Shown piece after piece: positions 1,605-30,506 of a DNA stretch of 35,517 bases. This stretch comes from Vulcanimicrobiota bacterium (GTDB taxonomy: Bacteria; Vulcanimicrobiota; Vulcanimicrobiia; Vulcanimicrobiales; Vulcanimicrobiaceae): NCBI GenBank assembly GCA_013044185.1, contig JABEUX010000018.1, positions 1-35,517 on the forward strand, given 5' to 3'. Every line of letters begins with the position of its first letter. Position 1 is the stretch's first letter. The translations under genes were made by a program, and so were the position numbers. The notes below the pieces were generated by a model that saw only the letters and a list, made by a program, of their open reading frames with translations, ran no database searches and was not told where the DNA came from.

Positions 1605-1660
1605 CGGGCAATCCTCCCGCCGTTTTCGCAGCCCTAACGCGCGTCGCTCCAGAGATCGAG

Positions 1661-1703
1661 ATCCTCAAAACCCCCGTTCGTATACAAACGGGGGTTTGAG
1701 GAT
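1661..1703. terminator. Palindromic stem-loop between convergent fliE and CPBP gene; candidate bidirectional terminator
   Basis: ATCCTCAAAACCCCCGTTcgtatacAAACGGGGGTTTGAGGAT: long inverted repeat with one A bulge, lying between two converging genes. No clear T tract on the plus strand. Confidence 0.6.
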
Positions 1704-1735
1704 GTGGGGGCCCTAACGGAACTTCGGCCGTTCCC

Positions 1736-2404
1736 TTATCGCACATGCTGAAAAATGATAAGATTCGTAGCGACTGTCATAAGATCATAAACATAGTGAG
1801 ATATTAATGTTACTCCGAGCGATTTGAATCGGTAGCGCAGCCACGTCCAAATAGTAATGATAGGAACCAGCATTAAATCGCTTGTGAAATGGTAGCCGAA
1901 AAATATTGCTCCAGCGATAATCGCGCCAGCTAAGCCGAGATATTGCTGAAGACGGGTCTGAAGCCAAACGTGAAATATCATCTCTTCGACAAATGGGGCG
2001 GTTGGGATCAAAAAGATAAGCGGTGCAACCGTGTCTCCTCGAAAAAAATAATCGTGCAAGGGCGTATGCGACGACGAACTGAAGGCAACAGCTATCATCA
2101 ACTGAGCAAGCCACCATAACAAGCAGGGCACGACACCTAGAACGATTATTTGCTTAACCGTCAGATCGCCAACGACGAGCTTTTTGAACCCTTTAAAGTT
2201 AAAGATCGTTATCGCTGCGAGTGGCATCGTAAGCGTTAAGTTATAGGAAACAAAGATTGCTACGGGGACGCTCAAACCACCGTATCTGAACCCGTAAAGC
2301 GCAAGGTAAAGGAACCAACCAGCCACTACAACGAGGCCAACCCTCGTTGTAGTGACAAATTTTAGGAACGGCGCCTCTGCGCTTGACGTCGATAGGCCAT
2401 TCAC
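1736..2404 (-). CDS. CPBP family intramembrane metalloprotease (Abi/CAAX-protease-like)
   Basis: Multi-pass hydrophobic protein with EEMIFHVWLQTRL, FFGYHF and ISHYVYD motifs of the CPBP family (EExxx(R), FxxxH, HxxxD/N). Confidence 0.8.
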   Translation of the reverse strand: MNGLSTSSAEAPFLKFVTTTRVGLVVVAGWFLYLALYGFRYGGLSVPVAIFVSYNLTLTMPLAAITIFNFKGFKKLVVGDLTVKQIIVLGVVPCLLWWLAQLMIAVAFSSSSHTPLHDYFFRGDTVAPLIFLIPTAPFVEEMIFHVWLQTRLQQYLGLAGAIIAGAIFFGYHFTSDLMLVPIITIWTWLRYRFKSLGVTLISHYVYDLMTVATNLIIFQHVR

Positions 2405-2428
2405 AATACGCTGAAGGCGATCGTAAAG

Positions 2429-3058
2429 CTATGCCGTTTGGTCGAACAGAGCGCCGGACGTACCGGAGGCCGAAATACCAGAGAGAATTATCGAGAAGAA
2501 GCCTGGGACGACGCTCGCAACTCCCTTAGCCATCGCATCCTGCATAAGGCTGTTGATTGTCGCTTGATCGGCCGCTGACAACGCCCCTGCGGATATCGAC
2601 GATCCAGGAACTCTGGACGCGCCTTCAATCGGCGGCATCGGTGGGTCACCACCAGCGTCATTTTTCATCGCTTTGATTGCGGCCTGGCCAGCCGTTCGTA
2701 AAATCGTCATGATCCGCCCGCCGTACTTACCCATAATGTAGCTGACTCCGGCGACGGCAGCGGGATTTTTCTTAAACTGGTTATTTACCCAGTTATATGC
2801 CTTCTCAATGGCCTTAACGATCGGATTGTTGGCAATGCCCCCGCCAGTCGGAGTCGGGGTTGCCGGCGCACCACTGTAGGTGACAATGATTCCGCTTCCG
2901 CCGGAAGAGGGAGGGTTGGATGGGAAATTTCCGATCGTGCATATGGGCTGATTAGTGGGATCGCCTGGGGTGGATGAGCAGGCTGGGCCAACGAGTGCCA
3001 TTTTCGTGAATCCATTCAAAAATACGTGTTGTAAATTAAGGAAGTGTCCCCTTGACAT
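2429..3058 (-). CDS. Orphan Gly/Ala/Pro-rich protein of unknown function, probably co-transcribed with the CPBP protease; alternative start at 3001
   Basis: ORF ends 24 nt before the CPBP start on the same strand; no recognised family. Two Cys near the N-terminus, a cationic amphipathic middle (IVKAIEKAYNWVNNQFKKNPAAVAGVSYIMGKYGGRIM) and a hydrophobic C-terminus. Internal ATG (MALVGPACSS...) at 3001 is a plausible true start. Confidence 0.55.
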   Translation of the reverse strand: MSRGHFLNLQHVFLNGFTKMALVGPACSSTPGDPTNQPICTIGNFPSNPPSSGGSGIIVTYSGAPATPTPTGGGIANNPIVKAIEKAYNWVNNQFKKNPAAVAGVSYIMGKYGGRIMTILRTAGQAAIKAMKNDAGGDPPMPPIEGASRVPGSSISAGALSAADQATINSLMQDAMAKGVASVVPGFFSIILSGISASGTSGALFDQTA

Positions 3059-3217
3059 TCATGATCCATCGAACCAAGGGGCGTGCGATTACCGCTCAGC
3101 CGCGTCGCCCGCGACGCCAAGCGGCCCAGCGTGAAAAGCCGGGGCACTCGCCCTTTTTACCAGAGGTTTACACTACGCGCGCCGACCTTTCGCGCACCGC
3201 TCGGCCATGCTCCCCGC

Positions 3218-3244
3218 CGTTTGCCCACAAACGCACGTTTGTGG
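3218..3244. repeat. Alternating inverted repeats CGTTTG / CCACAAACG / CGTTTGTGG
   Basis: CCACAAACG-ca-CGTTTGTGG (3225-3244) is a perfect 9-bp inverted repeat. CGTTTG at 3218-3223 can alternatively pair with CAAACG at 3228-3233. Confidence 0.6.
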
Positions 3245-3491
3245 CGGCTCAAAAGCAAGTAAGCGCGCGGAAAGCCCGTCATAGCGTCGCGCACGTGCAA
3301 TCGCGACCCGCGATCCATTCGGCTGTCGTATCGCTCGACCAACGGTCGATTCGGATCGCTAGGGTTTGGCGAACAGCGTGAAGCTCGACCGATGCTCGAT
3401 TTTGCACTCCCGAATATCGCAGAGGGCGACCGGAAGCCACGTCGGGCTCCGCAGCGAATCCCGCCGGCCCACCGTCAGGGCCCACGGCGGC

Positions 3492-3519
3492 TAAAATCCC
3501 GCCTCTTTTTCGCCGATAG
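3492..3519 (+). promoter_or_regulatory. Sigma28/FliA-like promoter upstream of flgF/flgG operon
   Basis: TAAAATCC (3492-3499) - 12 nt - GCCGATAG (3512-3519); close to the enterobacterial consensus TAAAGTTT-N11-GCCGATAA. Confidence 0.65.
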
Positions 3520-3636
3520 AAGAAGTGAACGCGGCTGGACGACCTCTCGCACGGGGGCGGGGCCGCGGGTTGAACCTGATCGATTGATGGTTCGACCATG
3601 ATACAGAACACCGAATCCGTGCGGAGGGTCTTTGTA

Positions 3637-4434
3637 TTGGTACGCGGTCTTTATACCTCGGCGAGCGGGATGCTCGTCGCCCAGCAACTCGCCGACACGG
3701 TGGCGAATAACCTCGCCAACGTCAACACTAATGGCTTCAAACAGACGTTGCTGGAGATTCAATCCGCCCCGACGCTCGACATCTACCGTTTGCAGACCGA
3801 TCCGGGTCCGCGAACGGGGAAGAACGCGCTCCCGGGCGTCCCCGTCGCCGCGCAGGTCGGGCAACTCGGCACTGGCGCGTGGGTCTACGATACCCCTGAG
3901 ACCTTCTCGCAAGGCCCGCTGCAGGCGACCGGAAATCCGTACGATCTCGCACTCGGTGGAACGAACGCGTTTTTCAACGTGCAGACGCCTCAGGGGGTCC
4001 GCTACACGCGCGACGGCCAATTCACGGTCAATCCCAACGGCAATCTGGTAACGATGGACGGCAACTTGGTCCTCGGCCAAAATGGCCCGATTCAGGTGCA
4101 GCAACAGCAGGGCGCGGTCACCGTCGGCCCCGACGGGACGGTTTCGCAGAACGGTATCACGATCGATCGCCTCGCACTTACGCAATTCAATAATCTCGTC
4201 GGCCTGCGCAAGCAAGGCAATAATCTGTTCGTCAATACCGGCAACGCGCAACCGCAAGCAACCGCGAATGCGACGGTCATTCAAGGGTCGCTTGAGAAGA
4301 GCAACTCCAACGTCGTGCGGTCGATGGTCGATCTTATCGTCGCCGAGCGCTGGTTCGATTCGAACTCCAAGTCGGTAACAATCCAAGATCAAACTACTCA
4401 GCTGGCGATTCAAGGCGTCGGCACCACGCCATAA
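3637..4434 (+). CDS. flgF: Flagellar basal-body rod protein, FlgF/FlgG type (first paralogue)
   Basis: LVRGLYTSASGMLVAQQLADTVANNLANVNTNGFKQ and C-terminal SNVVRSMVDLIVAERWFDSNSKSV. Start revised from 3598 to TTG 3637, preceded by GGAGGG at 3623-3628. FlgF versus FlgG assignment rests on position. Confidence 0.85.
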   Translation: MVRGLYTSASGMLVAQQLADTVANNLANVNTNGFKQTLLEIQSAPTLDIYRLQTDPGPRTGKNALPGVPVAAQVGQLGTGAWVYDTPETFSQGPLQATGNPYDLALGGTNAFFNVQTPQGVRYTRDGQFTVNPNGNLVTMDGNLVLGQNGPIQVQQQQGAVTVGPDGTVSQNGITIDRLALTQFNNLVGLRKQGNNLFVNTGNAQPQATANATVIQGSLEKSNSNVVRSMVDLIVAERWFDSNSKSVTIQDQTTQLAIQGVGTTP

Positions 4435-27059: not shown

Positions 27060-28382
27060 TTGCCGACTGCCGTGATGCTCTCGGCACTCTCGTTGCCTTG
27101 GAGTAAGATGCAGCAACACGTTCCTCAAGTGGTTGACTCGATGCTGCGCGTGGTTCGAACCGAGTTCGATGGCCGGTACTACAGAGAGACCTACCGCGAC
27201 GTCGCGCTCTCCGGAATAGATCCGGTATACCATTATGTGAATTATGGATGGAAGGAAGGCCGGCGTCCCCGCGCCGATTTCGATCCAACCACCTATCTCC
27301 AGTGCAACCAGGACGTCGCATCGGCAGGCGTCGAGCCGTTCTATCATTATCTCAAGCATGGTCGCCGCGAAGCTCGCGCCCCGTACGGCAAGGTGATGGC
27401 GGCCGTTCCTCATGCTCCCGCTCCGACCGTATCGATCCTCGTGCCGGCATTCCGTCCCGACTTTTTGGATATCTGTATTTCGAGCGCTCTGGGGCAATCG
27501 TACGGAGATTTCGAACTTCTTATAAGTGACGATTCGATAGGCGACTCCGTACAGTCGGTAGTCTCAAAATGGCAAGACGAAAGAATTCGGTATATAAATA
27601 ACCCAAATCGCCAGCAGCCCGGCGCCAATCGCGATTGTTTGATTGAAAATGCCAGAGGGCGTTATCTGAAGTTTCTTTTTGACGATGATTTTTTGTTGCC
27701 TAAGTCAGTATCAACATTAGTTACACTCGCCGATGAGCTTGAAGCAGACTTGGCATTTCATTCACGATATGAAGTGGACAAGAATGGAAAAATTCTCGAA
27801 GCAACGATCCCCTTTGGCTTTGATAAGTCACGTTTATTTGAAAAACACGAATTTGCGGAACGAGTCGTGAGCGTTTCAGGAAATATCATTGGCGAACCGA
27901 GCAATATACTCATCGCCGGCGAGTCTCTGCGTCGACTCGATCGGCCGTTTATGTTGCACGAGCGTAGGATGCGATTTCTGACGGACGTCGCTCTTTATTG
28001 CAACTTCTTCGCAGCCGACATGAAGATCGCGTTAATTGGGTATTTGGGGAGCGCGTTTCGTCGGCATTCCTCACAGAACTCCCAGGCAAAGGGAGCCATA
28101 TATTCAGCAGGCATCTTCGAGTGGGAGTTTATCCTTCGCTGGGCCGCCGATCGAGGCTGGGTCGACGAAGCAAGCTATTTGCGAGCCATGGCCCGACTGC
28201 TGGTTGAACTCTATCGGCCGAATTATGTCGACTTTCCCGAGCTGAACGGATTTATCGCTTTGGCCGGGCGAGGCAGCAATGGGAAATATCTAACGGCCGA
28301 GTTTTTAGAGGTTCTCGATTCGGCACACGCGGTCGTTGATTCACGGGTGGGGCATTCTTCGCCCATGCGAGCGATCGACTAG
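27060..28382 (+). CDS. GT2 family glycosyltransferase with N-terminal repeat module
   Basis: FDGRYYRETYRDVALSGIDPVYHYVNYGWKEGRRP / FDPTTYLQCNQDVASAGVEPFYHYLKHGRREARAP tandem repeats, then VSILVPAFRPDFLDICISSALGQSYGDFELLISDDS GT2 core. Confidence 0.88.
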   Translation: MPTAVMLSALSLPWSKMQQHVPQVVDSMLRVVRTEFDGRYYRETYRDVALSGIDPVYHYVNYGWKEGRRPRADFDPTTYLQCNQDVASAGVEPFYHYLKHGRREARAPYGKVMAAVPHAPAPTVSILVPAFRPDFLDICISSALGQSYGDFELLISDDSIGDSVQSVVSKWQDERIRYINNPNRQQPGANRDCLIENARGRYLKFLFDDDFLLPKSVSTLVTLADELEADLAFHSRYEVDKNGKILEATIPFGFDKSRLFEKHEFAERVVSVSGNIIGEPSNILIAGESLRRLDRPFMLHERRMRFLTDVALYCNFFAADMKIALIGYLGSAFRRHSSQNSQAKGAIYSAGIFEWEFILRWAADRGWVDEASYLRAMARLLVELYRPNYVDFPELNGFIALAGRGSNGKYLTAEFLEVLDSAHAVVDSRVGHSSPMRAID

Positions 28383-28383
28383 G

Positions 28384-29112
28384 ATGCCGGATGTCGAGGG
28401 TGGCGGCCCCACATTCCCTAAGCACGACTACGACGAGTATCCGAAAACCCTCGCCCCGGACGATTTTTGGGGGCAGGTTCGGAGAACGGTACATGGAGCG
28501 CCCATCGACGATCTGCAAATATCGATGATCGTCACAGCGGTACGTGATGGCCTGCTATTCACGCCAAAAGATGGTTTGTTGGATATCGCTTGTGGAAACG
28601 GGGCGCTATCGAAGGAATTTTTTAGCAATATTGCATCGTTTTACGGAATCGACTCCTCGGAATATTTGATTCAGGTAGCCAAAAAAAACTTTGCCCGTCC
28701 ACCGGACTTCACTTTCGATCGCCTTTTTATACGTGAAATGATAGGCGATCCCACCACGAATGTTAGGGTCACCAAAGCGCTCTGCTACGGAAGCTTTTCC
28801 TATTTTAGTTACGATGATGCGAATGAACTCATTTTTAAATTGCCGCTAAAATGCCCGAATCTTACAAAATTATATATTGGAAATATTCCGGATTTAGAGC
28901 GCGCTCGAAAGTTTTACGGAGAAGTGGATATCGAAGCAGCCTCGCTCGCGCGACATCAATCGCAGATCGGCATTTGGCGATCTCAAAGTGAAATGATGGA
29001 ACTGGCACTCAGCGCCGGGTGGTCGTGCGAAGTGCGATTTATGCCAAGCTCGTTTTACGCATCGCATTACCGGTTTGATGCGATTTTGTCGCGATTGGTT
29101 AAACCTAACTAA
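28384..29112 (+). CDS. SAM-dependent methyltransferase
   Basis: Motif I LLDIACGNGALSKEFF...YGIDSSEYLIQVAKKNF. Start revised to ATG 28384, just after the GT2 stop. Confidence 0.8.
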   Translation: MPDVEGGGPTFPKHDYDEYPKTLAPDDFWGQVRRTVHGAPIDDLQISMIVTAVRDGLLFTPKDGLLDIACGNGALSKEFFSNIASFYGIDSSEYLIQVAKKNFARPPDFTFDRLFIREMIGDPTTNVRVTKALCYGSFSYFSYDDANELIFKLPLKCPNLTKLYIGNIPDLERARKFYGEVDIEAASLARHQSQIGIWRSQSEMMELALSAGWSCEVRFMPSSFYASHYRFDAILSRLVKPN

Positions 29113-30506
29113 TGGAACGAGGAATTGGTTCGACAATTATTACCATTAATGGCGTGCCGTTTGAAATAAAGGTCGCTCTTTCGTTCGACGACATCGATGC
29201 GAATGGTGTAGCGTGGTGCGAGCCGGTCCGCGCACTTATCGCAAAACCGGAAGATTCGGTGCGCCTTCTAGGAACGTTAGTGGTTATTGCCGCAATCTGC
29301 CGCGATAGCGGCCGTCTGGAAGAAGCATTTGGCGCCCTGCGTATGGCGCGAAGAATGGCCAATACGCCAATACACTCGATCGACGGCTCGATTGCTAATC
29401 TTCTAGGGGAACTTAGGCCGCTTGAAGCTACGAGTAAAGCATATGAGATTATCTCGTATGATTCCGAGCCGAACCGTTTTATGGGCCATTTGAAAGTGAG
29501 TCGCATATACGAAAGCATATATCATCCGGGTCTTCCTTATGGAGGATTACTGGGGATTGTCGGGTATGAGCCATGCGTTAAACCAATATCAGTCGATAAT
29601 TTGTCATTCCACGTTATACGTCAGGATCGTATAGTTGCAACCGTACCGTTACTTGTGTATGCCGATCACGTTGGATCGTGGGTTCGTTGGGTCGAGGGCA
29701 TGCCGGGAATGCCCGTCGAGATTAACTACGCGGATCACGTTCCAGAGCGGCATGAGATTAACAATGTAATCGCGACGCATTTGGTGTCGCTCGCGCGGAG
29801 ATATTCCATTCGTGAGTTACTCTTTCAATCGGTGCCTAATGACGGGGCGAGCCTTGCCCGAGCACTAGGCCGACGTTTTCGCTATTCGGCCGAACTGTGG
29901 GATCGGCCGATTGTTGATTTAACTTTAGAAAATGACCTGTTGTTTAAGGACGTTCGAAAGAGCTATAAGGCATCGATAAATTGGGGAATGCGAAACCTTC
30001 GGATGGAGTACCTATCTGGGAGTATGTTAGACGATATCGAAAAAGCCAGGGTGTATTCACTGTTTCGCACCTGTCAGGCTGATATGTATGCCCATTTCGG
30101 CGATGCCTTTAGCCGTCAACTTTTCGACGAAGCCTTGCATATGTGTACGCATGGCTCGGGTGAAGTTGCGATTTCGTATGAACTCGATAATAGTGTTTGC
30201 GGCGTCGTTATAAGTAGCGATGCCGGCGGAAAATCATACTATGCACTTGGAGGGTCGCGGGTTGTCGAAGGCCGTCGTAGTCCCTCGCATTGGCTCGTGT
30301 ATAATGCGATTCAGCGTGCCAAGGTCCGCGGTAACCGAGAGTATCACTTGGGAAGATTATTCGGGGCGCCGATATCGGTATCGGGTTACGCAACGCGAAT
30401 AATGTCAAAACGCGAAATTGACGTATCGTTTTTCAAGCATGGATTTTCGGAGCGTAGCGACCTGAGGTATGTGTATCGCTTTGTAACCGGTGCGATCGGT
30501 GGATAG
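29112..30506 (+). CDS. FemAB/GNAT-like acyl- or aminoacyltransferase
   Basis: RPIVDLTLENDLLFKDVRKSYKASINWGMRN...VCGVVISSDAGGKSYYALGGS...SHWLVYNAIQRAKVRGNREYHLGRLFG resembles FemAB/GNAT (lipid II glycyltransferase-like) proteins. Confidence 0.65.
   Translation: MERGIGSTIITINGVPFEIKVALSFDDIDANGVAWCEPVRALIAKPEDSVRLLGTLVVIAAICRDSGRLEEAFGALRMARRMANTPIHSIDGSIANLLGELRPLEATSKAYEIISYDSEPNRFMGHLKVSRIYESIYHPGLPYGGLLGIVGYEPCVKPISVDNLSFHVIRQDRIVATVPLLVYADHVGSWVRWVEGMPGMPVEINYADHVPERHEINNVIATHLVSLARRYSIRELLFQSVPNDGASLARALGRRFRYSAELWDRPIVDLTLENDLLFKDVRKSYKASINWGMRNLRMEYLSGSMLDDIEKARVYSLFRTCQADMYAHFGDAFSRQLFDEALHMCTHGSGEVAISYELDNSVCGVVISSDAGGKSYYALGGSRVVEGRRSPSHWLVYNAIQRAKVRGNREYHLGRLFGAPISVSGYATRIMSKREIDVSFFKHGFSERSDLRYVYRFVTGAIGG

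What the first reader, a model, noticed from the sequence alone, without database searches (positions are those of the whole stretch)
1736..3058. Orphan Gly/Ala-rich ORF plus CPBP protease cassette inserted in the flagellar locus
A two-gene minus-strand unit (24-nt gap) sits between fliE and the flgF/flgG rod genes and points against the flagellar genes. It is visibly more AT-rich than its surroundings. The upstream ORF has no family I recognise: two N-terminal cysteines, a cationic amphipathic stretch (IVKAIEKAYNWVNNQFKKNPAAVAGVSYIMGKYGGRIM) and a hydrophobic Gly/Ser C-terminus. CPBP proteases are established as bacteriocin self-immunity or peptide-maturation factors in some systems. A secreted or membrane-active peptide precursor with its processing/immunity protease is therefore a reasonable, untested hypothesis. 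Alternatives are a CPBP anti-sigma-type protease or a degenerate genomic insertion.
Basis: partly seen in the sequence, partly recalled or inferred. Interest (0 to 1): 0.62.

Follow-up and report, generated by a model that had tools for sequence, protein, structure and literature searches.

The report
Swappable toxin-like gene with membrane partner
A small helical protein gene and its membrane-protease neighbour, lodged among flagellar genes of an uncultivated bacterium, belong to a family of swappable gene cassettes that look like antibacterial toxins each paired with its own membrane protector, a system I could not find described for this lineage.

Summary
The two-gene unit is real. The orphan (window 2432-3001, minus strand, 190 aa; the 209-aa start is unlikely) is followed after 24 nt by a CPBP protease gene (1739-2404, PF02517). 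Whole-genome searches show it is one cassette of a modular system in this genus. Cassettes share a conserved upstream DNA block and an exchangeable N-terminal leader, then carry a variable C-terminal core and a downstream membrane-protein gene. The same fliE-flgF junction is empty in two sister genomes and holds other cargo in three. Within G000, a paralogue shares the leader (98% DNA identity over its first 20 codons) but has a different core and partner. The window's core type occurs five times in 149 genomes of the phylum, once in another genus, and a CPBP gene follows it every time, under three leader types. Leader I occurs with at least four partners. The partner thus tracks the core, not the leader, which favours core-specific immunity over leader processing. 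Purifying selection acts. Sister cassettes behind the same upstream block include a lipoprotein with an endolysin-like domain. Best reading: polymorphic, probably membrane-active antibacterial toxin with cognate immunity. Toxicity, export and target are untested; no C39 exporter or contractile injection system was found.

The parts
   Evidence: alignment of sister cassettes begins at this ATG; dN/dS
2837..3001 (-). exchangeable leader I (55 aa, MALVGPACSSTPGDPTNQPIC...TPTGGG), Pro/Gly/Ser/Thr-rich, predicted disordered, no Sec-type signal seen
   Evidence: shared with G000:C208 and G004 paralogues, then identity collapses; AF2 pLDDT below 50 for residues 17-56
2432..2836 (-). variable core, type A: five predicted helices, Gly/Ala-rich, net charge +4, hydrophobic helix near the C-terminus
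1739..2404 (-). CPBP (Rce1-like, PF02517) intramembrane protease-like protein, 222 aa, GTG start; motif 1 is EExxxH where four relatives have EExxxR; FxxxH and HxxxD present
3040..3159 (-). conserved 5' untranslated block shared by leader I and leader II cassettes
3155..3190 (-). promoter-like box (GTCGGCGCGCGTAGTGTAAACCTCTGGTAAA) conserved upstream of leader I/II cassettes; function inferred
   Evidence: alignment
3224..3322 (-). U element: upstream block found at several variable-cargo sites per carrying genome of this genus
1659..1706 (.). strong hairpin between the convergent fliE and CPBP genes, possible bidirectional terminator
   Evidence: fold; related hairpins seen in G004 and G009
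1605..3486 (.). variable slot: empty (150 and 181 nt junction) in G005 and G008, other cargo in G002, G004 and G009; homology with the empty site resumes at the hairpin GGCGGCTAAAAT

Best explanation
The window holds one cassette of a polymorphic toxin-like system. A shared upstream region drives a protein with an exchangeable, disordered leader (delivery or export, inferred) and a variable helical core that probably acts on membranes (inferred). The membrane protein encoded just downstream, here a CPBP family member, is the core-specific immunity protein that protects the producer (inferred). The modular architecture, the strict core-CPBP pairing, the slot polymorphism and the purifying selection are shown; toxicity, delivery, target and immunity are inferred.
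For: Core A is followed by a CPBP gene in 5 of 5 loci across two genera, with only 2-8 PF02517 genes per genome. The partner tracks the core: core A with leader I (window), leader II (G002, G009) or another leader (G090) always has CPBP; core B in G004 and G007 has different leaders and slots but the same membrane protein (core 78%, partner 87% identical); leader I with core C or D has unrelated membrane proteins. Within one genome the leader is near-identical and the core is not. The same slot is empty in G005 and G008 and holds different cargo elsewhere. dN/dS is 0.18-0.34 for the less diverged pairs. The same U element precedes lipoproteins whose C-terminus is endolysin-like: G006:C18 matches a PHROG endolysin family at 3e-6, and the G000:C43 domain is its homologue. 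Core A is predicted all-helical.
Against: No experiment. No known toxin family or fold matches the core. AF2 confidence is moderate (mean pLDDT 63, pTM 0.52). No C39 exporter in the cassette carriers and no contractile gp25 gene, so the delivery route is unknown. Helix hydrophobicity is only modest apart from residues 165-178.
Confidence: 0.62

Rival explanations
1. The CPBP protein is a core-specific maturation protease: it cleaves or releases the core, which is a secreted peptide or signal (as SagE or MroQ do for their precursors), and is not an immunity protein.
For: CPBP proteins act as processing proteases in some peptide systems (PMC9298176); FxxxH and HxxxN/D are kept and four of five pairs keep EExxxR; the window CPBP weakly resembles NCBIfam myxosortase-like CPBP models, far below their cut-offs.
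Against: Other cores behind the same leader have unrelated, non-protease membrane proteins in the same position; the window copy has EExxxH; I saw no cleavage motif shared by the cores.
Confidence: 0.15
2. The cassettes encode polymorphic surface or adhesion proteins (antigenic variation, phage-receptor change) with helper membrane proteins, not toxins.
For: Low-complexity Gly/Pro leaders, multi-slot variation and lipoprotein members at other slots.
Against: Leader I and II proteins have no signal peptide; each core has a dedicated membrane protein; the endolysin-like core at a sister slot fits antibacterial action.
Confidence: 0.1
3. A toxin-antitoxin or phage-defence pair: the core is an internal membrane toxin kept in check by CPBP and released on infection.
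For: Two-gene unit, island-like insertion, helical core, membrane partner.
Against: No PADLOC match; the exchangeable leader and shared upstream block look like a delivery module; lipoprotein and endolysin-like members point outward.
Confidence: 0.09
4. A degenerate insertion without function.
For: AT-rich CPBP gene; the G002 copy has an apparent frameshift at a C9 tract.
Against: dN/dS of 0.18-0.34 for several pairs, conservation across genera, intact ORFs.
Confidence: 0.03

Closest known systems
CDI ionophore toxins (CdiA-CT type 10) and their CdiI proteins (PMC11630599)
   Same: Variable five-helix domain behind an exchangeable N-terminal region, with a cognate, highly divergent membrane immunity protein
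   Different: No CdiA/CdiB two-partner context seen; partner is a CPBP protein and not a two-helix hairpin; no sequence or fold match found
SitA/SitI lipoprotein polymorphic toxins of myxobacteria (PMC5562445)
   Same: Conserved N-terminal region plus swapped C-terminal domains at several loci, each with a downstream cognate gene; the sister cassettes here include lipoproteins
   Different: The window protein is not a lipoprotein; TraA-type outer-membrane exchange was not tested
Bacteriocins with CPBP (CAAX/Abi) self-immunity proteins of Gram-positive bacteria
   Same: Small membrane-active-looking precursor next to a CPBP gene; CPBP immunity has been reported (PMC9298176 introduction)
   Different: No double-glycine leader cut site confirmed, no C39 exporter, larger core, different lineage, partner replaced by unrelated membrane proteins in sister cassettes
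Pore-forming colicins (from memory)
   Same: No signal peptide, disordered Gly-rich N-terminus, helical membrane-active domain, multi-spanning membrane immunity protein
   Different: Core is about 135 aa and not about 200 aa, no receptor domain, no lysis gene seen, no fold match

Membership tests
CPBP/Rce1-like (PF02517) family, for the 222-aa protein | Pfam PF02517 match above the gathering score | tested here: met
   46.3 bits against cut-off 22.4
CPBP/Rce1-like (PF02517) family, for the 222-aa protein | catalytic motifs EExxxR, FxxxH, HxxxN/D | tested here: inconclusive
   FxxxH and HxxxD present; motif 1 reads EExxxH in the window, EExxxR in the four relatives
Polymorphic toxin system | shared N-terminal region with exchanged C-terminal domains | tested here: met
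Polymorphic toxin system | cognate gene directly downstream that tracks the C-terminal domain | tested here: met
Polymorphic toxin system | known delivery system | tested here: inconclusive
   no C39 exporter in carriers, no gp25; others not searched; genomes 61-96% complete
Polymorphic toxin system | toxicity of the core and protection by the partner | not testable with these tools
   needs expression assays
Class II double-glycine bacteriocin | peptidase C39 ABC exporter in the genome | tested here: not met
   PF03412 absent from G000, G002, G004, G007, G009; present in the genus only in G005; the genomes are incomplete
CDI ionophore toxin family | sequence or fold match of the core | tested here: inconclusive
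   no PDB sequence match, no Foldseek hit with E<=0.001, but CDI ionophore sequences or models themselves were not compared

The most novel reading that the evidence does not exclude
A new polymorphic antibacterial toxin system in an uncultivated bacterial phylum: fixed chromosomal slots, a shared upstream block and leader, a diverse set of helical and enzymatic cores, and core-specific membrane immunity proteins that include CPBP family members, delivered by a route that is neither C39 export nor a contractile injection machine.
Probability: 0.45. Interest if true: 0.75.

Novelty: new variant of a known kind. Interest (0 to 1): 0.62.

Why it matters
If right, it extends polymorphic toxin competition to a poorly studied phylum, supplies a natural experiment separating leader, core and immunity functions, and gives CPBP proteins a core-specific immunity role outside Gram-positive bacteriocins. 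The natural swaps make the open question of what CPBP proteins do in such clusters directly testable.

Tried and rejected
Rfam search of the upstream block found no RNA family above its cut-off. Weak hits of the orphan in G014, G015, G020, G021, G029, G045 and G050 were other frames or unrelated proteins. The single genome-contig scan found only G004's own contigs (JAJZVP01, 'bacterium isolate SKS5.bin58'); no paper in the held library was found for that MAG, so the phylum is not established here. Viral contigs and plasmids hold no relative. The AF2 model of core D was useless (pLDDT 31) and core D has no PDB match. Foldseek on core A gave nothing. Double-glycine export by a C39 transporter and T6SS/eCIS delivery were tested and not supported. 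A first script for the U element timed out and was replaced. The library search for CPBP as a toxin immunity protein outside bacteriocins found only CPBP entries in a table of a Morganella T6SS survey.

Full report
What is there. The window carries fliE (1260-1604), then on the opposite strand a CPBP gene (1739-2404) and the orphan (2432-3001), then flgF (3598-4434). The orphan's 209-aa reading frame can start at 3058, but sister cassettes align from the ATG at 3001, which in the relatives follows AAAGGA, so I take a 190-aa product. The CPBP gene is AT-rich (46.2% G+C); the orphan is only slightly so (54.5%), against 59.0% for the window.

The island is polymorphic. In G005 and G008, of the same genus, fliE and flgF are 150 and 181 nt apart with no gene between. 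G004, G009 and G002 have about 2.0, 2.3 and 3.0 kb of other cargo there. In G004 it is a different cassette: another leader, another core and another membrane protein. In the occupied genomes homology with the empty site resumes inside a terminator-like hairpin.

Modules. In G000 itself a paralogue on contig C208 has nearly the same leader (98% DNA identity over the first 20 codons, 90% over the next 20), after which the alignment drops to about a third; the next plausible downstream gene encodes a 132-aa membrane protein. In G004 two cassettes share a block of about 420 nt at 97-100% identity that spans the 5' region and leader and then diverge to about 60%. In G009 two copies share 120 identical nt, differ in the middle of the core, and are followed by CPBP proteins only about 54% identical. 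Cassettes lie in recurring slots next to flagellar, 2-oxoacid dehydrogenase E2, SCO1 and sigma-factor genes.

The partner follows the core. Core A occurs in G000, G002, G009 (twice) and, in a different genus, G090; nothing else in 149 genomes of the phylum matches. All five are followed by a CPBP gene on the same strand; in G090 the gap is 12 nt. A query with a G009 CPBP found, in 31 relatives, only the four CPBPs next to core A, while the carrier genomes hold 2-8 PF02517 genes in all. Core A is found behind leader I, leader II and the G090 leader. Core B in G004 and G007 has different leaders and different slots but near-identical partners. Leader I sits before cores A, C and D with different membrane proteins. 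This dissociation argues that the partner acts on the core, as an immunity protein would, and not on the leader.

Selection. Pairwise dN/dS (NG86) is 0.29 (core A plus leader, G009 pair), 0.32 (core B), 0.26 (its partner), 0.18 (core D) and 0.21 (CPBP, G009 pair). More diverged pairs give 0.23 (window CPBP against G009), 0.34 (core A, G009 against G002), 0.50 (window orphan against G009) and 0.73 (window orphan against C208); the last two are near saturation or span unrelated cores. fliE for comparison is 0.08.

The common upstream block. A U element about 100 nt long, with a 21-nt box that has zero matches in the reversed-pattern controls, occurs in eight of the 41 genomes searched (seven in the genus plus one 3-mismatch match outside it), up to four times per genome. 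It also precedes lipoprotein genes with variable C-termini. The C-terminal domain in G006:C18 matches a PHROG endolysin family (3e-6) and is homologous to that of G000:C43 (E=5e-6 pairwise); Pfam NLPC_P60 is only a sub-threshold hit (0.052). In G007 a Gly-zipper-like 141-aa ORF with a 91-aa membrane-protein-like ORF follows the core B cassette.

Structure. AF2 with eight sequences gives a disordered leader and five helices between residues 60 and 178. Foldseek against the PDB finds nothing significant. The five-helix count recalls the CDI ionophores (PMC11630599), but this is a resemblance, not a test.

Mechanism. I propose leader-mediated delivery (inferred), membrane insertion of the helical core in competitors (inferred) and protection of the producer by the cognate membrane protein, here CPBP (inferred from pairing). 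Protease activity may not be needed: the window copy has EExxxH in motif 1, and several CPBP proteins are reported to act without catalysis (PMC9298176).

Limits. The genomes are incomplete MAGs (G000 is 73% complete), several cassettes lie at contig ends, the phylum is not named by any tool result (a relation to Eremiobacterota/Vulcanimicrobiota is only a guess from memory), and no experiment exists.

Noticed in passing
L004 (G002:C4), about 1560-1575: The leader II start of the G002 cassette contains a run of nine C, and as assembled the reading frame is broken there. Either a homopolymer assembly error or phase variation.
   Followed up: partly
L044:102-806 (G007:C193): A 141-aa Gly-zipper-like ORF followed by a 91-aa membrane-protein-like ORF, a possible second toxin-immunity pair in the same slot.
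   Followed up: partly
L076 about 2640-4060 (G000:C43): Lipoprotein with a Gly-rich linker and an endolysin-related C-terminal domain, followed by an ORF with a signal-like N-terminus: a possible periplasmic toxin-immunity pair in the window's own genome.
   Followed up: partly
window 27060-30506: AT-rich stretch (about 45-50% G+C) holding a glycosyltransferase-like, a methyltransferase-like and an acyltransferase-like ORF, judged by eye.
   Followed up: no
L079 (G006:C164): A lipoprotein-leader cassette is cut short by what looks like an integrase/transposase ORF of 525 aa directly downstream, judged by eye.
   Followed up: no
L098:3823-4215: In G090 a third ORF (130 aa, membrane-like) follows the core A-CPBP pair immediately after the CPBP stop.
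   Followed up: no
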